Below, piece by piece: positions 6,149-37,446 of a stretch of 59,263 bases of DNA (position 1 is its first letter; each line of letters starts with the position of its first letter). The notes under the pieces were generated by a model that saw nothing but the letters and a program-made list of their open reading frames with translations, was not told where the DNA came from and did no database searches. Both the position numbers and the translations under genes were made by a program. The stretch is taken from positions 1-59,263 of IMG/VR virus record IMGVR_UViG_3300037096_000007; one strand, given 5' to 3'. This DNA is from a virus.

Positions 6149-8473
6149 TTATTGACCGGACGGCGCATTGGCATTCCGATAGGTAAGCGCAGCGGCAGGC
6201 GCAGCACGCGACAAGAGATTCGCCGATGGATAGCGAACGCCGCCGCCCATCCCGGATCGAATAAGCGAGTTGGCTAGAGCATGGCTGCGTAGGACGGCGC
6301 TAAGAGCACGGCCGCCAGCCAACGCACCGATGCCAAGGGCCGCATTGCGCTGGAAATTTTCGGGATCAATCTCATAAGCTGCACCGCCGATACCAGCAGC
6401 ACCCAACGCGGTTGCCCCTAACTTCATCGCAAGCAATCGTTCCGACGTTCCCGAGCTTGGCGGCTCGGTCAGAAAGCGTTGCCCAATGGCCGCAAGGTCG
6501 GAAAGCGGCCCGTTGCCACGCGGATAAGACTTGGCGGCCTGCGTAGCGAGCAGAGCGGGACGAATATCGCCCGTAGGAGCTTTCTTTGGCGTTGCAATAG
6601 GCTCAACGGTTTTTAATGCTCGCCATTGTCGCCGCGCCTCAAGCAAATCGTCTTGTGCCCCTTGCGGTGCTGATCGCTGCATTGCATCGTCAAGAGCCTC
6701 GCGGACCTGTGCTGCATAATAACGAACGTTCGGGTCTTTCGATTGTATTGCGCGGTCGAGCGGAGCACCCTTGCGCGTCAATGCCTGGTAAGTCTCACCG
6801 CTGAATGTGTGGGTCTGAGGGTCAACCGTCGTTAAGAGATCGCGCATTTGATTTTCAAGCGGCGCAATTTCCGATTGTGGAAGTACCGAACGAGCATCAT
6901 TCAGGATGGTGCCAAGATGCTGATAAAACGGCTGATCGGCTTGGATAACAGGCGTCCGAGCCGCAACACTATCGAACATTGTTCCGATGCGATCTCGCGC
7001 CCGGTTAATGGTCGCCGAATTAACCGTGTCGGTATTTTCTCCAAACGTTTGAGCGACGCCGCGATTAAAGGCGGATTGTTGTTCCGCTGTTCGGGCGCCA
7101 TATCCAGAGAACGGTAATCGCTGCAAGACCGAATCAGCAAACCGCATCATCGGATTGGAACTGATCTGCCCTGCCGTAACTGGAATGCCGTATTGGTTGC
7201 GCGCGGTTTGAGCGAGTTGTGCCGTCTCAGGCGATGCGGCACCAAAGATACCGCGACGCAAACCAGCGCCGAGCGCCGATGCAGCATATCCAGCCGGAAA
7301 CATTGCCGCCCCGGTTAGACCTCCAAATGCAATCTGATTACCTAACGGCTCATCCGATGCCGATGATGTTAAGGCCGACGCGCCTGCCCCGGCACCAGTG
7401 CCAGCCATTAATGCGCTTTCAACCGGACCAGCAGCCGCGCCGATGCCTGTTGCGCCTTCAATCGCAGCGCCGCCAGCGCCTAGCAATGGCGCGGTGCCAA
7501 TAATCTGTCCGCCGACACGGCCGACTTGTGCCGCCGGACTATTCGCCGCAACCGCATCAAAATTGTTGCGATCAACGACAATCCCTTGATTAACGCCAGC
7601 ACCCCAATTCTGGACGGCCGCATTAGTGCCCGGCGCAATGACGCCAGCGTTGGCGAGCAAATTAGCGCCGCCTGTCCCGGTCGCCGCAATACCTTGCGCT
7701 ATCGTGTCAGCGACATCACCAACACCGCGCACGGCACCGAGGCCAAGACGCTCCGCTGTTCCGGCAAGATCATCGGGCGATTGTGCTATCTGACGATTAA
7801 GCCATTGCGGCGTTGTTTCAGGACCAGATGGCGGCGTATAACCCTGCGGATGGATCGTAATACGTGGCACGCCTTGCGGCGTCATGGTCACGTCAGGATC
7901 GCCCGATGCTTGTCCCGGCTTGCTACCCCATTCGGCCAATAAATCAGGGCCTTCATCAGCGGGTGCTGGTACGGACGAGCTAATAGCTTTCGGTTGGCTT
8001 CCCCATTCGCTGAGAAGATCAGGCGTAACCGGACCATTCGCGCCTGCGTAAAATGTGTGATGACCAATTTGGGCGGTCTGTGAATATTTAGTAAATTCAG
8101 GCATTGGCCTGTTATTTGCGGCGCGATCCTGCTGAATTAATGGAATATTGCCATAATAAGTTGCACCATTTGTTTGGTCTTGCGTGTCGCCATTCCAAAC
8201 CGATTCCACAATATCACGGGCGCGCTGCAAATCAGGATCAGCCTTATTAAATCCAGCAGGATTATTTTTGTCATTCTTCGGCAGATTCCAAGCCGAGAAT
8301 TGATTAGGCTGCAAGACAACATCTTTTGGATTGCTCGGAAACTCACCGCTTTGAGTTCTGTTTTTGATTACAGACGCAACGGCACTCATGCCACTCGCGC
8401 CGTCCGAACCAGCCTCAGACAGGACCGTTCTAGCTACCGCGTCTAAATCGTCTGGCGCTATATTGTCCGCCAT
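6149..8473 (-). CDS. Large ejection protein with N-terminal SleB-type cell-wall hydrolase domain
   Basis: 774 aa. Residues ~8-145 match the SleB/Hydrolase_2 family: LDAVARTVLSEAGSDG near the start (Glu20 is the likely catalytic residue), SAVASVIKNR, NQFSAW and later GATYYGN. The rest has long Ala/Gly-rich hydrophobic stretches (~235-400), then helical segments, and Gly/Ala-rich potential membrane segments near the C-terminus. This resembles virion proteins that are injected into the periplasm and locally open peptidoglycan while forming a conduit. It occupies the place of the P22 gp16/gp20 ejection proteins. The start ATG overlaps the stop of the upstream gene at 8473. Confidence 0.8.
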   Translation of the reverse strand: MADNIAPDDLDAVARTVLSEAGSDGASGMSAVASVIKNRTQSGEFPSNPKDVVLQPNQFSAWNLPKNDKNNPAGFNKADPDLQRARDIVESVWNGDTQDQTNGATYYGNIPLIQQDRAANNRPMPEFTKYSQTAQIGHHTFYAGANGPVTPDLLSEWGSQPKAISSSVPAPADEGPDLLAEWGSKPGQASGDPDVTMTPQGVPRITIHPQGYTPPSGPETTPQWLNRQIAQSPDDLAGTAERLGLGAVRGVGDVADTIAQGIAATGTGGANLLANAGVIAPGTNAAVQNWGAGVNQGIVVDRNNFDAVAANSPAAQVGRVGGQIIGTAPLLGAGGAAIEGATGIGAAAGPVESALMAGTGAGAGASALTSSASDEPLGNQIAFGGLTGAAMFPAGYAASALGAGLRRGIFGAASPETAQLAQTARNQYGIPVTAGQISSNPMMRFADSVLQRLPFSGYGARTAEQQSAFNRGVAQTFGENTDTVNSATINRARDRIGTMFDSVAARTPVIQADQPFYQHLGTILNDARSVLPQSEIAPLENQMRDLLTTVDPQTHTFSGETYQALTRKGAPLDRAIQSKDPNVRYYAAQVREALDDAMQRSAPQGAQDDLLEARRQWRALKTVEPIATPKKAPTGDIRPALLATQAAKSYPRGNGPLSDLAAIGQRFLTEPPSSGTSERLLAMKLGATALGAAGIGGAAYEIDPENFQRNAALGIGALAGGRALSAVLRSHALANSLIRSGMGGGVRYPSANLLSRAAPAAALTYRNANAPSGQ

Positions 8474-20647: not shown

Positions 20648-22833
20648 TATGAACCGCTCCCATTCATCCCCGGTGGATTTGGATCAGGATTTAACGCTGC
20701 CTCATTGACCTGCGAAATGGTGTCGTAAATGTGCTGATGACCGGCCATCATAATGTCGTGGTTGAATTGCGCTTTCTGTGCTGGCGTTAGCAACAATTCC
20801 TTGAGCGCCTTGATTTCATATTCCATGCGCTTCGTGTCAGCATTGAACGCCTCAATATCGTGCCGCTCATCGCGCCCGCGAACCTTCAAATTCATGTCGG
20901 CTAGCTTCGTCATTAGCTCGGCATTGAGAGCGGTAAGCCGCTGCGCTTGCTGTTGCAGCGCGATCATCTGTGGCTCGGCATTGTCATTAAAGAGATAGGG
21001 CTTTTGCGCCTTAATCTCTTTCTGTAACCGCTCCATGATTTCGGTGGCGCCGGGGAAATCGCCATACTTGAACAACAAATCGGCGGCAACAGCAGCCAAT
21101 TCCTTGTTGTTTTGCATGATTGCCGACATGGCGTCCCACGCTTCCTGACGTTGCGTCGCATAATCAGGACCAGGATCGGAAACGCATTCGTATTCGCCAA
21201 CCTTCGGATTGAATACGAGTTTGACGGCTTCCTCATCCTCTTTAACCTGAGACAATTCCTGCACGGCTTCGTCCTGGTTCGGATCAATCTTGATCCACCG
21301 TTTGTCGTTATTCTCGTCCAGAATATGAAGCGTGCGCTCGGTATCGTAAATCTTCGGGATCAAGTCGAGAAGCTGGACGCCGATATAGCGCAGCATGTCG
21401 CTTTGATGCTCGGGGAAATGATAGGTGGCCTCATCGCCTTGCTGTTGGCGCATACCAATAGCTTTACCCGATGCTGCCGCCTGCTGATCCTCCATTCCCA
21501 TTTTGGATTGGTATTGACCAGATATCATCATCATATGGCGATCAGCAGCCTCCATTCCCTGCATATGCGCTTCGGATGGAGCGGGAGGCTGTAGCCGCGT
21601 GGGCGGATCAATCTTTTGCAGCCCTTCCGGGGCTTCGTCATCAATGTCGTTATAGAGAATGACCGGGAAGCCGTTGATATTTAGCGTCTTGTATTGCTCT
21701 TGCCCCTCAATCGAACGGGCCGGAGCCATGAACGGCGATTTAGGTTGTAGCGCAACAATCTCGACCGCCATACTGGAATTGTAATTCAGCATTCGTTGGG
21801 CGTCGATCAATGGTCGCGTGTGACCCTTAAGATCAAGCGTCGCGTCGATGACAAGCTCGCGCCCGACACACCTGCAAATCGGAATATATTTCCCAGCCCA
21901 ATCGCCACGATCAATAATCGTATTGCCGGCTATCAAAAACCACTTGACCTCATCGTTGAAAACACTGCGTGTTCCGCCGTCGATCACGCCATTCTCAATG
22001 TCGTCCATCAAGGCTTTGTAAATCTCAGCGCCGCTTTCCTCTCGAATTTCTGATGCGAGCTTTTCAACCTCGTTGCCGTCATCCTGCTTATACCAAACAT
22101 AGGTATCCGGCGTCTGTTCCTTGCGAAAATACTTCGCAAGCATGATTTCCTTATCGGTCAGCCAGCTTGCAAACGCGCTATCAACCGGTGCGGTGCCAAC
22201 CTTATCCTTCCACTTCGGATACTTCCGGTTGAATTCTTTGCGCGGCATCCGGTCAAACACGAAACCGAAATTTGCGTCGGAGCCATCAGTCTCACGAATC
22301 CATGGATCGAGATAAACACCAGTCGGATCGCGTGACGCCTTGAGGTAAATATCCTGATTGCGCGAGCGATTGGAAACATAGGCCGTCTCGATCAAACAAT
22401 AGCCGATACCACCATCAACCTGTTGCTCGGTGATCTTGCGTTTGACCGCCCCGAACTTTGAAATGTCCTCAATCCGTTTGATGATGCTATTCATCACCTT
22501 GGCGGATTCGTAGGTCGCTAATCCTCCGGTCGGGCGAACCTTGACGCCGAAATTACTCTTGGAAAGCTGGTTGATGATAAGATCGTTATGAACGCGCGTG
22601 TTGTTAATCGTGAGGCAAACGCCATCCTCACCATTCCGCGTCTCGTAAATCTTTGTTGGCCATTGCCATGCATTGCGTGCATCGGCATTGGCGAATTTTA
22701 TATCCTCTCTGATTCGTTCGTCTTGGACGCCCTGCCAATCCTGACAGGCTTTCCACCGCTCGGTCGCCTCTAGGACAATAGCCGCATCGGTCGTGGCCGG
22801 CTTGCCATCATCAGGCTCGATAGGAGCAACCAT
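20647..22833 (-). CDS. Portal protein, P22 gp1-like
   Basis: 728 aa, matching the P22 portal (725 aa). Characteristic segments: WQGVQDERIREDIKFANADA, NAWQWPTKIYETRNG, LTINNTRVHNDLIINQLSKS, RRITEQQ-like ITEQQVDGGIGYCLIETAY, and CVGRELVIDATLDLKGHTRP. The C-terminal third is a long helical barrel region (LTALNAELMTKLADMNLKVR and following). Forms the dodecameric DNA-entry vertex and docks the terminase; shares its first base with the terminase stop. Confidence 0.9.
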   Translation of the reverse strand: MVAPIEPDDGKPATTDAAIVLEATERWKACQDWQGVQDERIREDIKFANADARNAWQWPTKIYETRNGEDGVCLTINNTRVHNDLIINQLSKSNFGVKVRPTGGLATYESAKVMNSIIKRIEDISKFGAVKRKITEQQVDGGIGYCLIETAYVSNRSRNQDIYLKASRDPTGVYLDPWIRETDGSDANFGFVFDRMPRKEFNRKYPKWKDKVGTAPVDSAFASWLTDKEIMLAKYFRKEQTPDTYVWYKQDDGNEVEKLASEIREESGAEIYKALMDDIENGVIDGGTRSVFNDEVKWFLIAGNTIIDRGDWAGKYIPICRCVGRELVIDATLDLKGHTRPLIDAQRMLNYNSSMAVEIVALQPKSPFMAPARSIEGQEQYKTLNINGFPVILYNDIDDEAPEGLQKIDPPTRLQPPAPSEAHMQGMEAADRHMMMISGQYQSKMGMEDQQAAASGKAIGMRQQQGDEATYHFPEHQSDMLRYIGVQLLDLIPKIYDTERTLHILDENNDKRWIKIDPNQDEAVQELSQVKEDEEAVKLVFNPKVGEYECVSDPGPDYATQRQEAWDAMSAIMQNNKELAAVAADLLFKYGDFPGATEIMERLQKEIKAQKPYLFNDNAEPQMIALQQQAQRLTALNAELMTKLADMNLKVRGRDERHDIEAFNADTKRMEYEIKALKELLLTPAQKAQFNHDIMMAGHQHIYDTISQVNEAALNPDPNPPGMNGSGS

Positions 22834-25598
22834 TACCTGCGAGCCATCCAGCCTGTACCGCGCTCGGTGGGCATATCAGAGGATGGTTTATTGAGAATGG
22901 CAGGCGTAACGCGCATGGCCTTTTTCATGGCGATCACCATTCCCTTTTCACCCTCCGACCACGCCATCATGACCGCATCGCCCTTGTCCGGGCTTCGTCC
23001 AAGCCGATCCGGTTTTTTCAGATCGTCTTTCGGCTCAACCAAAATGCCGTTCGGCGTAAGTTTCCACCGTGGCGATGTCAGATCGGCGAGCAACTGAGGA
23101 TCAGGCGGCAATGCGATTGGCGAGCCACCATCCTGGTCCGGGTCAAGCGCCTCACGAAATCGCCATGCGATCTCAGCGCGTTTGTTAAAAAATGAAAGCT
23201 GTTTATCCTTCGTGCGCTCATTAGAGCTATTGGCCGCATTGAATGGCCGAACGTCAATCCGGTTGTCGTTCAACCGCTCCTTAGCCGCGCCGCCATAACC
23301 GCCGCCCATGTCCATCACGATCACGGCGCTATTTCTGCGAACCTCAACCACAAGCGCAGCGACCGATGAACCTGTCGGCGTTAATATGCCGGGTCGCTCA
23401 ATCAACGAGCCATACCAAGGCCCAAACCGAGGCGCTAAAACCGTCCTATCAGCGCCGCCCTGCGCAACGTCCACACCGACCGCTGTCATTTGCGCGCCGC
23501 TCGGCGCGGTAGGTCGCCATCGTTCCTGCGCGGCCCTTACCCATGCGGTCGGGATAACCTGCCACTCGTGGTCCTCGCGCCCGACAACGAAATCGCCGTT
23601 GAGCAATTGGCTTCGCAAAGGCTCCGGTAATGCCTGGATTTGCGCGCGATAGCCTGTGTTAGCGAGATACGGATTATTCCGCAGTAGCGATTGAATGAAC
23701 GTCCGCGTCTGAGGCTGCACGACCTCCGTGTTGTCGTCGCCCGCGTTTATCTCGGCTTCGGTGGCATAGCGCCAATCCAAGCCGTCGCCCTTGAATACGA
23801 TTGGCGCACCATCTGGCACCCAAACGGTCGAACCATCCCTGTCAGGACCAGTAACCGCCCATCGTAATTCGCCTTGGACCGCAGGCTTAGAGAATTTTGG
23901 ATCGAGCCAAGGCGCAAACCACTCAATGAGCCATTCGCCTTCGCCACCAGTCGGAGGGTTGCTGGCGATTATCATACGGCGACGCTGCTGCGGATCAACG
24001 CTACGCAGCCAGCCTAGAACGAACCGAACCTTTTGCTTTCCGAGTTGCGCACCTTCGTCAAAGCCGATGAAATCATGCGGCCGGCCGCGCCAGCTTTCTT
24101 CAGAGCCGGGCCGCTCCAAGTGCCCAAGCTCAAGCAATTTATTTCCCGTTCGCAGCGTTTTTTGCTGGCCGTTCCAGCCGTCACGTCCAGCCAGCGCTAG
24201 CAATCGTTCCTCAAGGCCGCGAAGGTCCGTACTTTGCTTGCGGAATATGACCGCGTTTTGATGATTGTTAAGCGCTATGCCGCAAAGTAAATCGCTGTTG
24301 TGCGTCGGGACCATTCCATAGCCGCATAGATACTGACGCGACGGACTGTCAACCGAAATACATTTCACCGGAACAGAACTAATCTCTCTGATACTCTCAA
24401 TGTATCGCCGGAAAACTGTCGACCTATGGCCGGCTGTTTTTTGTCGTTTTAATTTCCTATCAATACGAAATGCTTGGAATGAAGCGAGGAATTTGATTCT
24501 ATATTTTGGGCCAATTAGCCGTCCATTTAACTTAGCATCGCCGATGCTAATATTCGCTTTGCAACCAAGCGACCTAATTAACTCCAGAACGCCAAACGCC
24601 AATTTTTCGGACACCACAGAAAATTCACATTGCCCTCGTGCGTCAGCATAACCATCAGTATCCATAAGCCCTTGAAGCAGGGCTATGCGCTGCATGATCG
24701 AGGAACGCAAATATATTTCAGGGATCGCCTTAGCTCGGATAAGGCCAGCCGCGCGAAGGGCAACTCTTAATCCACCGACGACACCATAGTCTAGCTTTGT
24801 TGAACCTTTTGTAAGTTTCCATCCGCTCTGTTCAACAGTTTGCGAAAACAACTCCACCATTTGCGGCTCGGCCATCGTAATGCGAGCGCCGGAACTTGTG
24901 CCATCACCGAGCCACGCACCGAGCAAATATGGCTCAATCGGGAGTTTGATATCATCGCAATCTAGTGGCCCGCATACGGCTACAGAATGATTTAGGCGTT
25001 TCGCGTCGAAAATAGTTTGTGAAAGCTCCAGTGTTGTTCGTACGCCGCCAAGGAAACGTTGCGGTCTAAGCGGCCTTGCTGCATTAGCTAACTTATCACG
25101 CGACCATTTTCCAGTTGATCTACTAAGACGCCGTGAGCGGCGTTTGGCCCGCCACATTACGCTCTGTCGAAGAAACGCCATTCTCTCGGAAGCAGAAAAA
25201 GTAAACCAACCATGTTCAGCATCGGCAACAATAGAGTTTCCATCGGAAAACCCAATCTCAAAGCATCGCCTTCCGATCATAACTGGAGACACAGCAGTAA
25301 TACGGCATACTTTCCCGTCATTATCAAAAACGTTATCGCCTACCTGAAGTTCTCCCATTGATTTCCAGCCGCTAGGGACCGGGATGGGAGTCTTGATATA
25401 AAGAGCTTTCCCGCCGCCCGCCGCGCCGCCGAATAGCATTAAATCGGCTTCACTATAATAAGCCTGTAGCTGCGGCTCATTGCGAGGATCAGGAAGCCAT
25501 TTAGCTGCCAATTCCGGCTTCAATAGCGCGTCAAGCTGCGCTTTCTCATCCGGCTTTAATGAGGCGATGTATGCGCGAGGATCGGATATGGCGAGCAT
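22833..25598 (-). CDS. Terminase large subunit interrupted by an intein (921-aa precursor)
   Basis: Exteins: residues 1-64 and 435-921, 551 aa after splicing. The Walker A loop is split: ...LFGGAAGGGK (57-64) ends extein 1 and S435 begins extein 2, restoring GGAAGGGKS. Walker B is DFIGFDEG with Asp514 and Glu515. The C-terminal nuclease domain has the RNase H-like pattern GVDVAQGGADRT (Asp710, Asp717) and IVMDMGGGYGG (Asp763), and a later SPDKGDAVMMAW. The enzyme translocates DNA through the portal and cuts concatemers. Without splicing the P-loop is broken, so packaging depends on the intein. The gene lies directly upstream of the portal gene; the TerS-like gene is 4 kb upstream, separated by fibre genes. 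Confidence 0.93.
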   Translation of the reverse strand: MLAISDPRAYIASLKPDEKAQLDALLKPELAAKWLPDPRNEPQLQAYYSEADLMLFGGAAGGGKALYIKTPIPVPSGWKSMGELQVGDNVFDNDGKVCRITAVSPVMIGRRCFEIGFSDGNSIVADAEHGWFTFSASERMAFLRQSVMWRAKRRSRRLSRSTGKWSRDKLANAARPLRPQRFLGGVRTTLELSQTIFDAKRLNHSVAVCGPLDCDDIKLPIEPYLLGAWLGDGTSSGARITMAEPQMVELFSQTVEQSGWKLTKGSTKLDYGVVGGLRVALRAAGLIRAKAIPEIYLRSSIMQRIALLQGLMDTDGYADARGQCEFSVVSEKLAFGVLELIRSLGCKANISIGDAKLNGRLIGPKYRIKFLASFQAFRIDRKLKRQKTAGHRSTVFRRYIESIREISSVPVKCISVDSPSRQYLCGYGMVPTHNSDLLCGIALNNHQNAVIFRKQSTDLRGLEERLLALAGRDGWNGQQKTLRTGNKLLELGHLERPGSEESWRGRPHDFIGFDEGAQLGKQKVRFVLGWLRSVDPQQRRRMIIASNPPTGGEGEWLIEWFAPWLDPKFSKPAVQGELRWAVTGPDRDGSTVWVPDGAPIVFKGDGLDWRYATEAEINAGDDNTEVVQPQTRTFIQSLLRNNPYLANTGYRAQIQALPEPLRSQLLNGDFVVGREDHEWQVIPTAWVRAAQERWRPTAPSGAQMTAVGVDVAQGGADRTVLAPRFGPWYGSLIERPGILTPTGSSVAALVVEVRRNSAVIVMDMGGGYGGAAKERLNDNRIDVRPFNAANSSNERTKDKQLSFFNKRAEIAWRFREALDPDQDGGSPIALPPDPQLLADLTSPRWKLTPNGILVEPKDDLKKPDRLGRSPDKGDAVMMAWSEGEKGMVIAMKKAMRVTPAILNKPSSDMPTERGTGWMARR
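24297..25406 (-). mobile_element. Intein with LAGLIDADG endonuclease, class 3 (WCT) signature
   Basis: Residues 65-434 of the terminase precursor (370 aa). The first residue is Ala, so there is no N-terminal Cys/Ser/Thr nucleophile. Block B reads IVADAEHGWF with His129 and Trp131 (position B:12). Block F has VKCISVD with Cys413 (F:4). Block G ends VPTHN with Thr432, His433, Asn434 and is followed by Ser435 (+1). Trp-Cys-Thr at these three places is the defining triplet of class 3 inteins, where the block F Cys makes the first branched intermediate. Two LAGLIDADG motifs are present, YLLGAWLGDG (~224-233) and LLQGLMDTDG (~307-316), so the homing endonuclease appears intact. Confidence 0.93.
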
Positions 25599-33085: not shown

Positions 33086-33316
33086 TCATGGCTTGCCTAT
33101 TCGCCACGTCTGAGGAATTCCGGGGAATAAACCGTCGTGGCAACTAACCACATCGCCATCCGCGATTACCTTTTTCGCTATTTCCTCCTCAACCTCTCTC
33201 CCCGGAACCGTAAACCATCTTTTGCCAGACGGCGTATGCATCTGCATTAGCGACGCGCCCATGCGCATCCGATCTTTGACGCGAGACACAGCGACCCTTG
33301 TGCTACCTTTGAGCAT
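33086..33316 (-). CDS. Unrecognised protein, 76 aa
   Basis: Start taken at ATG 33316, which overlaps the end of the IbrA-like gene by 14 bases. Contains TPSGKRWFTVPGREVEEEIA and VISCHDG-like VVSCHDGLFPGIPQTW; compact, mixed strand/helix. No family recognised. Cotranscribed with the ibrA/ibrB-like genes. Confidence 0.5.
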   Translation of the reverse strand: MLKGSTRVAVSRVKDRMRMGASLMQMHTPSGKRWFTVPGREVEEEIAKKVIADGDVVSCHDGLFPGIPQTWRIGKP

Positions 33317-34568
33317 TTGCGTTCTCCACAAAACCAAAAGCGTTTGGAGCTTTGTTCCAACCCTTTTTGCGGCGTTCCATCAGGTCGAGATATTTTTGAT
33401 AGGCTTCGCTTTTATGCTGAGTAAAGCCGATGCCCTTGCACCAATAATCATTGCGCAATAGCGATTTGCATACGCGACGCCATGATGGCGCACCACGTGA
33501 GGCCTCGGCGTCATAGGGAGCCTCGTCGGGGATACCGTTTTCGTATCCTCTAGTGCTCCACCACTTTTCAAATAGCATGATTTTATTTCGGAAATGCTCG
33601 CGCGTTTTTGGCGGCATGGATTCAAATAATAGCTTAGCAAAGCTGCGCCACGTATGACCGGCAGGCTTTGTGATCCTTCGGTAGCCGTTTATATTACCCC
33701 ATTCCTGGACATACAACGCACCGCCATTTGCGCCATTCACCCGCGCAACAACGCGTGCCCATGTCTCAGGCTCGATCAAATGGAAAAGCCATAAGCCCTT
33801 GCGCTGATCGTCACCGTACGGCTGGCAAATTCTCATTTGGTGAATTGATAACCCGGCTTTGTACATCAAATCGTAAAGGCGATTGTACGGCATTTCCGGA
33901 TGGCGAGCGTGCCACGTCCACAGATCGGCAGTCCGCCAATCGTAAATCGGATATATGTTGAAAACATCCGCAATGACTTTCGAGGTCCAGCGCTTACCGT
34001 CTTTCATTTCCTTGTGCGATGTGGCGATGGTACGGAAACGGTTTAGGCTTTCATCGGTTCGGATGCCAACAAAACAGGCGCACGATTGCCATTGCGCAAA
34101 CCATTCGCCAAACAGCGGCACGAATTCCTCAAATTCCATTCCTGAATGAAAGAACGGAAAATAATTTGGGTCAATTACGGCGCGATCCGGCAAATCGCGA
34201 ATCCAGGCGTCTTTTTTGTCGGGGTCCCAACACAGCCAAAACGGCATATAAACGCTAACAGCGTTCCGCAGATGTAGTGGCAGGCAGACCCAATAAAGCT
34301 CAATGTTATCCTTATAAAGATCGAAACATTTTTTCGCGTGGTCGATTGTGAGTTTGTATTGGCCCTCAAGATCGACCAGCAAAATACCGATCTTACGATT
34401 GCGTCTGATCGCCTCCGCCATGACAAGGTGTAGCATAACCGTGCTATCCTTACCGGCGCTAAAGCTGAGATAAATCCGCTCAAAATTATCGAATGTCCAG
34501 GCAATGCGCTCTTGCGATGCCTGCACCACATTAATCCCAATCGAATGTTTTAGGAGCGATTGCTTCAC
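33303..34568 (-). CDS. ibrA: IbrA-like PAPS-reductase-family protein (DUF3440), 421 aa
   Basis: GTG start at 34568, chosen because GGGAGGGGA lies 8 bases upstream; the open frame continues upstream without a site. The PP-loop SFSAGKDS (residues 35-42) marks the ATP-pyrophosphatase/PAPS-reductase superfamily. Further family-typical segments are IGILLVDLEGQYKLTIDH, CFVGIRTDESLNRFRT, IYPIYDWRTADLWTWHAR and the downstream DUF3440-type end. E. coli IbrA has this architecture and acts with the ParB-like IbrB; biochemical activity is not settled. Here an IbrB-like gene lies two genes upstream with one unknown gene between. The start overlaps the unknown gene by 38 bases. Confidence 0.8.
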   Translation of the reverse strand: MKQSLLKHSIGINVVQASQERIAWTFDNFERIYLSFSAGKDSTVMLHLVMAEAIRRNRKIGILLVDLEGQYKLTIDHAKKCFDLYKDNIELYWVCLPLHLRNAVSVYMPFWLCWDPDKKDAWIRDLPDRAVIDPNYFPFFHSGMEFEEFVPLFGEWFAQWQSCACFVGIRTDESLNRFRTIATSHKEMKDGKRWTSKVIADVFNIYPIYDWRTADLWTWHARHPEMPYNRLYDLMYKAGLSIHQMRICQPYGDDQRKGLWLFHLIEPETWARVVARVNGANGGALYVQEWGNINGYRRITKPAGHTWRSFAKLLFESMPPKTREHFRNKIMLFEKWWSTRGYENGIPDEAPYDAEASRGAPSWRRVCKSLLRNDYWCKGIGFTQHKSEAYQKYLDLMERRKKGWNKAPNAFGFVENANAQR

Positions 34569-34956
34569 GATATTTCCCCTCCCACAAGGCAATAGCCTCG
34601 TCCGCCACTCGGTTCGCTTCGTCCTGTTCTGGCTGTGATAGTGTATGCCACCCAAGCCGCGTGCAATTCTCAGGTGAGTTGACTGCGATACAACAGGCAG
34701 CATGACCAAGCCACGCTTGTCGATTCATCCCCTGTGCAGTTAGATTCACCTCGCATGATATCGGCCATTCCTCGATTGCCTTGAGCATTGCGAGCTTAAA
34801 TTCCTCGGGCGAGCGCATAAGATCGCCGGCGGCGTTAATATACGATTGCGCTTTATCGCCGCTGACATTGCGCCACATCCCGGCTGGAAATTCCTCCCAT
34901 TTGTCATGCGGATAATATCTCCGCTTCAACGCTTTCGCCAATCTCGCCCTCCACAT
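34531..34956 (-). CDS. Unknown gene between ibrB- and ibrA-like genes, 141 aa
   Basis: Overlaps ibrB-like upstream by ~53 bases if it starts at ATG 34956. A TTG five codons in (34941), with GGAGG just before, is an equally good or better start. Conserved-looking stretches: RRYYPHDKWEEFPAGMWRNV, CEVNLTAQGMNRQAWLGHAA, RLGWHTLSQPEQDEANRVAD. Two adjacent Cys (AACCIAV). No family recognised. Tight embedding suggests it works with the pair. Confidence 0.65.
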   Translation of the reverse strand: MWRARLAKALKRRYYPHDKWEEFPAGMWRNVSGDKAQSYINAAGDLMRSPEEFKLAMLKAIEEWPISCEVNLTAQGMNRQAWLGHAACCIAVNSPENCTRLGWHTLSQPEQDEANRVADEAIALWEGKYREAIAPKTFDWD

Positions 34957-35668
34957 TCAAATTATCATCTTCGTTGATACGATCAGCTTCCCAAGCTTCG
35001 GAAAACTCGCGATCCTTAAACATTTCCGCAAGTCCGGTTATTTGGGCGAGACGTAATACTTCGTCAGGGTCCATTCCTAAATTTTTGCCGATCTTTTCAT
35101 TCGACCAATTGCGGCGCTTTAATTCCAAAACAATTTCGGACATTCCATCGACACGGTGCTTACCGCGCGCTCGATTGTGTCGCACGGTCGCGGCAATGCG
35201 ATCCGAACGGTCTGTTTGCTCTGATCTGATTTGCACGACAGGCAGATAGCCCATAACCCGAGCGCGAATATCATCGCATTCTCTGCCAACACGATGGCGA
35301 TGGAAGCCATCAACAACTTCGTAGGCATCGGCTTCTTTGTTGGTGACGATCGGCTGCGTGTAACCATCAGCGGCGATTGATAATCGCAGCAATTCCATTT
35401 CGGGTGGCGCAACGCTGTTAGGATTGTAATCGTTTGCGCGGACTTGATCGGAACGCACCCACCGCACGCAATCAACAGGTTCATTTCCAAATGGGCTATG
35501 TTCCGAGATTATTGCGCGGAGGCGATTGATAGCCTCGATTTTATCGGCGAGCGACAAATCATCCAAGGCGTCAATCTTTTTCGTCACCGTCGCCACGACT
35601 TTCGCAACCGCGCTCTCATTTATCGGCGACGGTCTTTCAGCAACATCCAAAGGAAATAACGTATCCAT
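34904..35668 (-). CDS. ibrB: IbrB-like protein with ParB N-terminal domain, 254 aa
   Basis: Residues ~65-140 contain the ParB/Sulfiredoxin fold: VRWVRSDQVRANDYNPNSVA, LRLSIAADGYTQPIVTN, then AYEVVDGFHRHRVGRE, the 'G.HR...' nucleotide-binding box. Residues ~165-225 are a helix-turn-helix segment (RGKHRVDGMSEIVLELKRRN, WSNEKIGKNLGMDPDEVLRL), ending acidic. IbrB is the usual partner of IbrA. ParB-type folds of this kind bind CTP or ATP and can have nuclease or kinase activity; the activity here is not known. Confidence 0.78.
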   Translation of the reverse strand: MDTLFPLDVAERPSPINESAVAKVVATVTKKIDALDDLSLADKIEAINRLRAIISEHSPFGNEPVDCVRWVRSDQVRANDYNPNSVAPPEMELLRLSIAADGYTQPIVTNKEADAYEVVDGFHRHRVGRECDDIRARVMGYLPVVQIRSEQTDRSDRIAATVRHNRARGKHRVDGMSEIVLELKRRNWSNEKIGKNLGMDPDEVLRLAQITGLAEMFKDREFSEAWEADRINEDDNLNVEGEIGESVEAEILSA

Positions 35669-35677
35669 CCCTATCCC

Positions 35678-35953
35678 CTATGTTGCCAATGAAAGCATCG
35701 CCGACGCGTCGGCAACATCAACGTAATCTGATAAGAGAAAACCCAAAGCGCGCGCACCCGCCATCCATTCAACAGCCGAATCAGCATCCACTATTCCGCC
35801 GCGTAATGCAATGCCGATTGTCTCGATTTCATTCACAACCAATAATGCGCGGGTGCGAGCCGCGCGCAATTCCGCAAGAACATATTCGCGATAGGCAATC
35901 TCACCGGGATGATCGCCGCGCACCATCATCGCAAATTCGGAAACCTTTTTCAT
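35678..35953 (-). CDS. Unrecognised helical protein, 91 aa
   Basis: Helical (YREYVLAELRAARTRALLVV, NEIETIGIALRGGIVDADSA, VEWMAGARALGFLLSDYVDV). Start overlaps the helicase stop by 4 bases. A helicase or ibrB partner by position only. Confidence 0.55.
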   Translation of the reverse strand: MKKVSEFAMMVRGDHPGEIAYREYVLAELRAARTRALLVVNEIETIGIALRGGIVDADSAVEWMAGARALGFLLSDYVDVADASAMLSLAT

Positions 35954-37446
35954 GCGACGACATACTCGGCGTTGCGTTTAGATTTTGCCCATTGGATATT
36001 TTTACTTCTAATCCAAGATAAGGTTTTTGGACCCGGCTCAATCGGCATTGCATCGCGAATTGACGGAATGTTCGGCCATACTTTGAATTTCTCGCGATAT
36101 TTATTTGCTGCCCACCCCTCCTTGTAGCCGTGCTGAGCCGCGTACCAGCGCAATTCAGCGAACAACAACTGTTTCTCCGCAAGCGTGTATTCTTTTTTCG
36201 CAACGCGCTTTTGTCCACCAGTGACATCAACAAGCTCGCCATCACGCTCGATTACGCCGTTTACCGCCCGCGATTCAAATCCGCAATGCGGGCATTTTGA
36301 AACCTTCGGCGGCTTCAAATATCCGCATGATTTGCATTCCTTCGGTAGTGCGATGCGCGGCTTGGCTTCCTGCGGCTCGGCTTTCTTTCCCGTATTCAGC
36401 CTATCGTGGTGAATGTCGGTTACGAATCCCAATCGCTGCGTCGAATCACTGTGATCGAGGATCAGCGCGTAATCTTTTCCCGGCGTCGTGCGTAATGCTC
36501 GCCCGATGATTTGCGTGAAAAGAATTTCGCTTTTCGTTGGCCGGCACAAAACCAAACAGCGAACATCGTAATCAACTCCGGTCGTCAGCGTCGCCACGTT
36601 GCAAACGATCTGACATTCTCCGCTATGAAATTTTCGTTTTATCTCGCGGCGCTCAAGGTCGGTCGTGTATGCGTCCTGATATTCCGCTTTGATGCCAGCT
36701 CGGATAAATCGTTCCTGCAAATTCTTGGCGTGCGCACGATCAACGCCGTAAACGAATGTTTTATCCCTCCCCCAAAGTTTTTTCCATGTCTCGATTACGT
36801 CGGCAACGAGCGTGCCTTGCTGCATCGCTTCGCTCAATTGGCCTTCGTGGTAATCGCCTGCAACAATCTTGATGTTGCGTAGGTCGGGATGGCCAGCAGC
36901 AAACACGCGGAACGGCGACAACAAACCTTCTGAAATTAGCTCCTTCGTGGTCGCAGCGATCAAAAGCGTATCAAAATATCGCCCGAGTCCAATCGACCAT
37001 GGCGTAGCAGAGATTCCGATAAACGGAACGTTTTTCCAATCGTCATGGGTCAGCCATTCCCGGTGGCGCTTGTGCAGCGAATGAACCTCATCGATGATTA
37101 CAATATCAGCGCGGGGAAATTCCGATCTCCGGTCTAGCGTCTGAATGCTGCAAATTTGCACCGGCTTCGACCAATCCTGCAATTCATGCGCTGCTTGGAT
37201 AACCCCAATATCACGAATTCCCTCGTTCCAAAACATTTCGACCGTCTGCGAAACCAACGAAACCGCATTGACACAAAATGCTACACGCTTGTCCTTTTCG
37301 CGGGCGCTCTCGACAATCGCCGCCGATAGCTTCGTCTTGCCCGAGCCGGTCGGCGATTGAACCACAATCCGTCGCACCCCTTGGCGCACGGTTTGCCGCA
37401 ATGCCTCAAGGGCGCGCGATTGGTGTGGCCATAAATCGGTTTTCAT
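35950..37446 (-). CDS. SF2 DEAH-type helicase with zinc ribbon (RadD-like), 498 aa
   Basis: Motif I SPTGSGKTKLS (~residues 30-40), motif II IIDEVHS, motif III GISATPW, motif V TLTTGVDYD, motif VI QIIGRALRT. After the core comes a four-Cys zinc finger, CKSCGYLKPPKVSKCPHCGF, as in RadD-type repair helicases and several phage replication helicases. A basic tail follows. Likely unwinds or remodels DNA during phage replication or recombination. First of the genes read with the ibr module; preceded by a 72-aa gene. Confidence 0.85.
   Translation of the reverse strand: MKTDLWPHQSRALEALRQTVRQGVRRIVVQSPTGSGKTKLSAAIVESAREKDKRVAFCVNAVSLVSQTVEMFWNEGIRDIGVIQAAHELQDWSKPVQICSIQTLDRRSEFPRADIVIIDEVHSLHKRHREWLTHDDWKNVPFIGISATPWSIGLGRYFDTLLIAATTKELISEGLLSPFRVFAAGHPDLRNIKIVAGDYHEGQLSEAMQQGTLVADVIETWKKLWGRDKTFVYGVDRAHAKNLQERFIRAGIKAEYQDAYTTDLERREIKRKFHSGECQIVCNVATLTTGVDYDVRCLVLCRPTKSEILFTQIIGRALRTTPGKDYALILDHSDSTQRLGFVTDIHHDRLNTGKKAEPQEAKPRIALPKECKSCGYLKPPKVSKCPHCGFESRAVNGVIERDGELVDVTGGQKRVAKKEYTLAEKQLLFAELRWYAAQHGYKEGWAANKYREKFKVWPNIPSIRDAMPIEPGPKTLSWIRSKNIQWAKSKRNAEYVVA

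What the first reader, a model, noticed from the sequence alone, without database searches (positions are those of the whole stretch)
24297..25406. Class 3 (WCT) intein inserted exactly inside the terminase P-loop
Seen: TerL is interrupted between Lys64 and Ser435 of Walker A (GGAAGGGK|S). The insert starts with Ala, has Trp131 two residues after block B His129, Cys413 at block F position 4, Thr432-His433-Asn434 at block G, and Ser at +1, plus two LAGLIDADG motifs. Known: class 3 inteins lack the N-terminal nucleophile and use this Trp-Cys-Thr set; few are characterised and they are thought to have spread through phages. Inference: packaging ATPase activity is strictly conditional on splicing, so the intein could act as a timing or redox switch as well as a homing element.
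Basis: partly seen in the sequence, partly recalled or inferred. Interest (0 to 1): 0.8.

Follow-up and report, generated by a model that had tools for sequence, protein, structure and literature searches.

The report
Class 3 intein in phage terminase
The phage's DNA-packaging motor gene carries a self-removing protein insert (a class 3 intein with a homing nuclease) exactly in its ATP-binding loop; it is real and cleanly inserted, but dozens of relatives occupy the same spot in other phages, so it is an ordinary new member of a known mobile family.

Summary
TerL (window 25598..22833, minus strand) is split between Lys64 and Ser435 of Walker A by a 370-residue in-frame insert, 25406..24297. 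It aligns from first to last residue with two crystallised class 3 inteins (6RIX, 6BS8; E 7e-31 and 4e-28), with Trp67, Cys349, Thr368 and His65 in register. It has the Hint-LAGLIDADG fold in a confident model and both LAGLIDADG aspartates. All 80 nearest sister terminases (best 84% identical) have an uninterrupted GGxxGGGK|T/S site, so the insertion is clean. The insert is AT-richer at third codon positions (GC3 0.43) than its host gene (0.60).

It is not unusual in kind. Of 191 distinct related inteins collected here, all have the Cys and Thr, 190 the Trp, and 182 sit between Lys and Ser/Thr; about 48 sit in homologous terminases, and named phages have it too. Splicing is almost certainly needed for packaging, because this is the only TerL found in the window. 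The proposed timing or redox switch is unproven: the Cys48/F:4-Cys pair of the redox-sensitive M. smegmatis DnaB intein is present, but Cys48 is common in this family and missing from over half of the inteins in homologous terminases.

The parts
22833..25598 (-). Large terminase (TerL) precursor ORF, 921 aa, interrupted by the intein
   Evidence: Open frame; Terminase_6N match to the C-extein; PHROG terminase families; the only Terminase_6N match in the record
25407..25598 (-). N-extein, residues 1-64, ending in GGAAGGGK of Walker A
   Evidence: Translation; alignment with empty-site sisters
24297..25406 (-). Class 3 intein with LAGLIDADG homing endonuclease, 370 aa (A1..N370)
   Evidence: phmmer to 6RIX/6BS8; model pLDDT 91, pTM 0.87; Foldseek to PI-SceI and the class 3 DnaB inteins
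25206..25226 (-). Block B ADAEHGW: D62, H65, W67 (B:12)
   Evidence: H65 191/191 and W67 190/191 of related inteins
25260..25274 (-). GRRCF: Cys48, aligned with the redox-active Cys48 of M. smegmatis DnaBi1
   Evidence: Gap-free alignment; C in 141/191 relatives
24900..24926 (-). LAGLIDADG motif 1 (LLGAWLGDG, D168)
   Evidence: D in 182/191
24651..24680 (-). LAGLIDADG motif 2 (LLQGLMDTDG, D251)
   Evidence: Pfam Hom_end / LAGLIDADG_3; D in 189/191
24351..24368 (-). Block F VKCISV with F:4 nucleophile Cys349 (precursor C413, codon 24360-24362)
   Evidence: C in 191/191 relatives
24297..24308 (-). Block G PTHN: Thr368 (G:5), His369, Asn370
   Evidence: T and N 191/191, H 186/191
22833..24296 (-). 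C-extein, from Ser435 (+1 nucleophile), with Walker B FDE (24051-24071), SNP motif (23955-23969) and nuclease-type aspartates
   Evidence: motif roles from general knowledge of TerL

Best explanation
The insert is a full-length, probably active class 3 intein with an embedded LAGLIDADG homing endonuclease, mobile between phage terminase genes. After translation the Hint domain folds. The F:4 Cys349, assisted by His65 and Thr368, attacks the Lys64-Ala1 bond and forms a branched thioester. Ser+1 (Ser435) then takes over the N-extein, Asn370 cyclises, and the exteins are joined as GGAAGGGKS. Until this happens TerL has no P-loop and cannot be the packaging ATPase. The endonuclease cuts uninterrupted TerL genes of co-infecting phages at the conserved P-loop codons, and the repair copies the intein in. 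Shown here: sequence, register, predicted fold, intact motifs, empty sister sites, many same-site relatives. Inferred: splicing, cleavage and homing.
For: End-to-end register with the crystallised class 3 inteins. Confident Hint+HEN model matching PI-SceI (E 3.9e-20) and the class 3 DnaB inteins (TM-score to target 0.82-0.88). Invariant H65, C349, T368 and N370, with W67 190/191, in 191 distinct relatives; the later scans that supplied most of them used endonuclease peptides, not WCT peptides. Flush uninterrupted site in all 80 nearest TerL relatives and in all 12 readable relatives of L002's TerL. GC3 0.43 in the intein against 0.60 in the exteins and a lowest value of 0.45 in 23 other ORFs. 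Same-site inteins in L002, L003 and L204 (57, 57 and 53% identical); the C-exteins of L002 and L003 are 53 and 48% identical to the window's. Tree clade of these four at support 99. Extein motifs intact and only one TerL in the record.
Against: No splicing or cleavage was measured. The intein is only slightly more similar than the exteins between window and L002 (57 vs 53%), so an old insertion with losses cannot be excluded against recent horizontal transfer. GC3 is low but not far below that of some other genes here.
Confidence: 0.93

Rival explanations
1. The intein is also a regulatory switch: oxidation pairs Cys48 with the catalytic Cys349, stops splicing and holds TerL inactive, so packaging waits for reducing conditions or for a late stage of infection.
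For: Cys48 and the F:4 Cys occupy the positions that form the inhibitory disulfide in M. smegmatis DnaBi1, a class 3 intein also in a P-loop (PMC6195587). H2O2 inhibits N-cleavage by the related MchDnaB1 intein (PMC7664689).
Against: Cys48 is widespread in the family (54 of 81 representatives at 50% identity), not tied to this phage, and absent in 28 of 49 inteins in homologous terminases. The same insertion site recurs in many inteins that lack Cys48. Sister phages do without any insert.
Confidence: 0.1
2. The splicing domain works but the endonuclease is inactive or drifting, so the intein is now inherited only vertically.
For: No close copy of this intein was found (best 57%), so no recent transfer is seen. 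Uninterrupted TerLs are the rule in near sisters.
Against: Both LAGLIDADG aspartates and other invariant endonuclease residues are intact; the endonuclease part of the model is confident for most of its length.
Confidence: 0.2
3. Class 1 intein or non-splicing insertion rather than class 3.
For: Pfam's Intein_splicing model does not find it.
Against: There is Ala at position 1, a full WCT set, and the best solved relatives are class 3; the class 1 intein gp41-1 scores far lower (6QAZ E 7e-4). The control genomes show that the Pfam model works elsewhere, so it simply does not reach this divergent class.
Confidence: 0.02

Closest known systems
Class 3 DnaB inteins MchDnaB1 (6RIX/6RIY) and M. smegmatis DnaBi1 (6BS8)
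   Same: Ala1, H65, W67, F:4 Cys, G:5 Thr, HN end and Cys48 aligned without gaps; DnaBi1 is also inserted in a P-loop before Ser (PMC6195587; PMC7664689)
   Different: Those are mini-inteins without an endonuclease and lie in a replicative helicase; this one keeps a LAGLIDADG domain and lies in a terminase
Class 3 inteins at the TerL P-loop of other phages (e.g. Mycobacterium phage Manda, Stenotrophomonas phage SOVA965, Clavibacter phage CMP1, Gordonia phage YungMoney, Vibrio phage 489E54-1; uncultivated L002, L003, L204)
   Same: WCT set, LAGLIDADG domain, Lys/Ser-Thr junction of Walker A
   Different: 33-37% intein identity in the named phages, several in other terminase families; L002, L003 and L204 are 53-57% and in homologous terminases
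Mycobacteriophage TerL1-a P-loop inteins (PMC5050341)
   Same: Described insertion site between the invariant Lys and the Thr of the TerL P-loop
   Different: That study names TerL1-c and -e as the class 3 ones related to DnaB-b and describes the P-loop site in terminase_1; this TerL matches Terminase_6N
Class 1 intein-endonuclease PI-SceI
   Same: Same two-domain Hint + LAGLIDADG architecture
   Different: N-terminal Cys nucleophile and class 1 chemistry (general knowledge)

Membership tests
Class 3 intein | No Cys/Ser/Thr nucleophile at intein position 1 | tested here: met
   Ala1
Class 3 intein | Trp at block B:12 | tested here: met
   W67 aligned with W67 of 6RIX/6BS8; W in 190/191 relatives
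Class 3 intein | Cys at block F:4 | tested here: met
   C349 aligned with C124 of MchDnaB1; 191/191
Class 3 intein | Thr at block G:5, then His-Asn end and +1 Ser/Thr/Cys | tested here: met
   T368-H369-N370, +1 Ser435
Class 3 intein | Hint (horseshoe) fold | tested here: met
   AlphaFold2 model pLDDT 91; Foldseek TM-score to target 0.82-0.88 against class 3 DnaB inteins
Class 3 intein | Splicing through a branched thioester on the F:4 Cys | not testable with these tools
   Needs expression and mutation of Cys349
LAGLIDADG homing endonuclease intein | Two LAGLIDADG motifs with catalytic acids | tested here: met
   D168 and D251; Pfam Hom_end and LAGLIDADG_3 above cut-off
LAGLIDADG homing endonuclease intein | Clean insertion relative to uninterrupted alleles | tested here: met
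   80/80 nearest TerL relatives uninterrupted at this codon junction
LAGLIDADG homing endonuclease intein | Cuts the uninterrupted allele | not testable with these tools
Redox-switch intein of the M. smegmatis DnaBi1 type | Cys48 plus F:4 Cys | tested here: met
   Both present and aligned
Redox-switch intein of the M. smegmatis DnaBi1 type | Reversible disulfide that blocks splicing | not testable with these tools
   Needs purified protein; Cys48 not conserved across inteins of the same extein group (21/49)

The most novel reading that the evidence does not exclude
A phage packaging motor whose activation is gated by redox-controlled intein splicing: the Cys48-Cys349 pair delays P-loop assembly until conditions are reducing, so that packaging is timed by protein splicing.
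Probability: 0.08. Interest if true: 0.6.

Novelty: new member of a known kind. Interest (0 to 1): 0.25.

Why it matters
It adds a clean, full-length case of a class 3 intein at a Terminase_6N P-loop, with close uninterrupted sister alleles that make homing directly testable. The wider collection shows the TerL Walker A Lys|Ser/Thr junction as a major home of class 3 inteins, and that Cys48, described as non-conserved in the M. smegmatis DnaBi1 study, is present in about two thirds of this family sample. If the redox idea held, it would give phage packaging a post-translational switch, but that is not shown.

Tried and rejected
Redox-switch uniqueness: rejected as a special feature, because Cys48 is common in the family and absent in many inteins of the same extein group. 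Rarity of the class at this site: rejected. A second terminase that could make splicing dispensable: none found (only the Terminase_6N family was searched). Further LAGLIDADG domains or Pfam-detectable inteins in the window: none beyond this one. Nearly identical phage records: none in INPHARED by megablast. Reverse transcriptase (because TerL resembles that of Bordetella phage BPP-1): none. tRNA and Rfam scans: nothing. Generic intein models in Pfam and NCBIfam do not recognise the splicing domain. The original class 3 definition paper (PMC3133030) was not held.

Full report
The observation. The large-terminase ORF runs from 25598 to 22833 on the minus strand (921 aa). Its Walker A motif GGAAGGGK ends at Lys64 (25407-25409) and resumes at Ser435 (24294-24296). 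The 370 residues between them, 25406..24297, are in frame without stops. With the insert numbered from 1, they are Ala1, His65, Trp67, Cys349, Thr368, His369 and Asn370, followed by Ser+1.

What it is. A sequence search of solved structures gives the class 3 inteins MchDnaB1 (6RIX, E 6.8e-31) and M. smegmatis DnaBi1 (6BS8, E 4.2e-28) as the best matches. They align without gaps over the first 80-81 and last 35-36 residues, so that the Trp, Cys, Thr and block B His fall exactly on their catalytic counterparts. An AlphaFold2 model from an 18-sequence alignment has mean pLDDT 91 and pTM 0.87. Foldseek matches it as a whole to the intein-endonuclease PI-SceI (E 3.9e-20), and its splicing part to the class 3 DnaB inteins (TM-score to target 0.82-0.88). 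Pfam recognises the endonuclease half (Hom_end, LAGLIDADG_3) but not the splicing half. Both LAGLIDADG aspartates are present.

Clean insertion. The 80 best IMG/VR relatives of the C-extein, up to 84% identical, all have an uninterrupted GGxxGGGK|T/S-type junction. At DNA level the joined flanks of the window match L025 and L026 at 96 and 97 of 120 bases. Relatives of the L002 terminase, which does carry an intein here, are also uninterrupted where readable (12 of 12). The intein has GC3 0.43, against 0.60 for its exteins and a lowest value of 0.45 among 23 other ORFs of the window. The extein motifs FDE and SNP and the nuclease-type aspartates are intact, and no second terminase of this family is in the record. 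Splicing is therefore almost certainly required to make the packaging ATPase. This is inferred from the site, not measured.

Relatives. I collected 191 distinct complete inteins (the window's and its relatives) from viral contigs, bacterial genomes and named phages. In them C349, T368, H65 and N370 are invariant and W67 is present in 190. The later scans, which supplied most of them, used endonuclease peptides, so this conservation is not simply built into the search. 182 of the 191 lie between Lys and Ser or Thr. Grouping the exteins by homology places 49 in the window's terminase group, 48 of them with Lys at -1. Other groups are further terminases, DnaB-type helicases and dCTP deaminase (group names other than TerL/Terminase_6N and dCTP deaminase are my reading of the P-loop context). 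On the intein tree the window joins L002, L204 and L003 with support 99, all at GGxxGGGK|S of homologous terminases. Named phages with a class 3 intein at the TerL P-loop include Manda, SOVA965, CMP1, YungMoney, 489E54-1 and SPLA3. The caveat is that the set was gathered by similarity to this intein.

How it most likely works. The chemistry is taken from the characterised class 3 inteins (PMC6195587, PMC7664689, PMC7891396): attack of the F:4 Cys on the Lys-Ala bond, transfer to Ser+1, Asn cyclisation, and extein joining. Mobility through the endonuclease is the standard homing route. Intact motifs, differing base composition and sporadic occurrence support it, but the intein is only slightly more similar than the exteins between window and L002 (57 vs 53%), so the age and direction of transfer are open.

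The switch idea. The pair Cys48 and F:4 Cys that forms an inhibitory disulfide in M. smegmatis DnaBi1 (PMC6195587) is present here in the same positions. This makes a redox effect possible. But Cys48 occurs in 141 of 191 inteins, and in 54 of 81 representatives at 50% identity, across terminases, helicases and dCTP deaminases, while 28 of 49 inteins in the window's own extein group lack it. It is a family trait rather than a sign of a packaging switch. I give the switch about one chance in ten.

Known or new. TerL P-loop inteins and class 3 phage inteins are described (PMC5050341), 1,701 class 3 inteins were catalogued by 2020, and 82.5% carry LAGLIDADG motifs (PMC7891396). This is a new member of a known kind.

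Noticed in passing
L130 3001-4038 and 18 further loci (L134, L135, L137, L138, L140 and others): Class 3 inteins in bacterial (many Chloroflexi) dCTP deaminase genes, between Lys and Ser of RLEGK|SSLGR. This is a Lys|Ser junction outside any P-loop NTPase. A cyanophage dCTP deaminase intein is known to self-excise (PMC6293099; its class was not checked).
   Followed up: partly
191 related inteins, incl. L115 and L122: 182 of 191 class 3 inteins have Lys at -1 and all have Ser/Thr at +1, also in non-P-loop hosts such as a Cas4-type exonuclease (VVDYK|TG). This may reflect a -1 preference of the splicing chemistry or of the homing site.
   Followed up: partly
Intein position 48 across the family: Cys48, called non-conserved in the M. 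smegmatis DnaBi1 study, is Cys in 141/191 relatives and in every member of the DnaB, RKNGK-terminase and dCTP deaminase groups, but in only 21/49 of the window's terminase group.
   Followed up: partly
L109 (Acidovorax phage ACF1) and L255/L256: Inteins with the class 3 F:4 Cys and block G Thr that appear to begin with Cys at position 1, i.e. mixed class 1/class 3 features.
   Followed up: no
L118 (Vibrio phage D284), L112 (phage LittleE): Intein-split terminases annotated in public records as 'DarB-like antirestriction' or 'exonuclease'; likely misannotations caused by the insert.
   Followed up: no
33303-35668, minus strand: Adjacent genes for a DUF3440/PAPS-reductase protein and a weakly ParB-like protein, resembling an IbrA/IbrB pair, next to a ResIII/DEAD helicase at 35950-37446.
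   Followed up: no
6149-8473, minus strand: 774-aa protein matching endolysin families at its N-terminus and a DNA ejection protein family over the rest.
   Followed up: no
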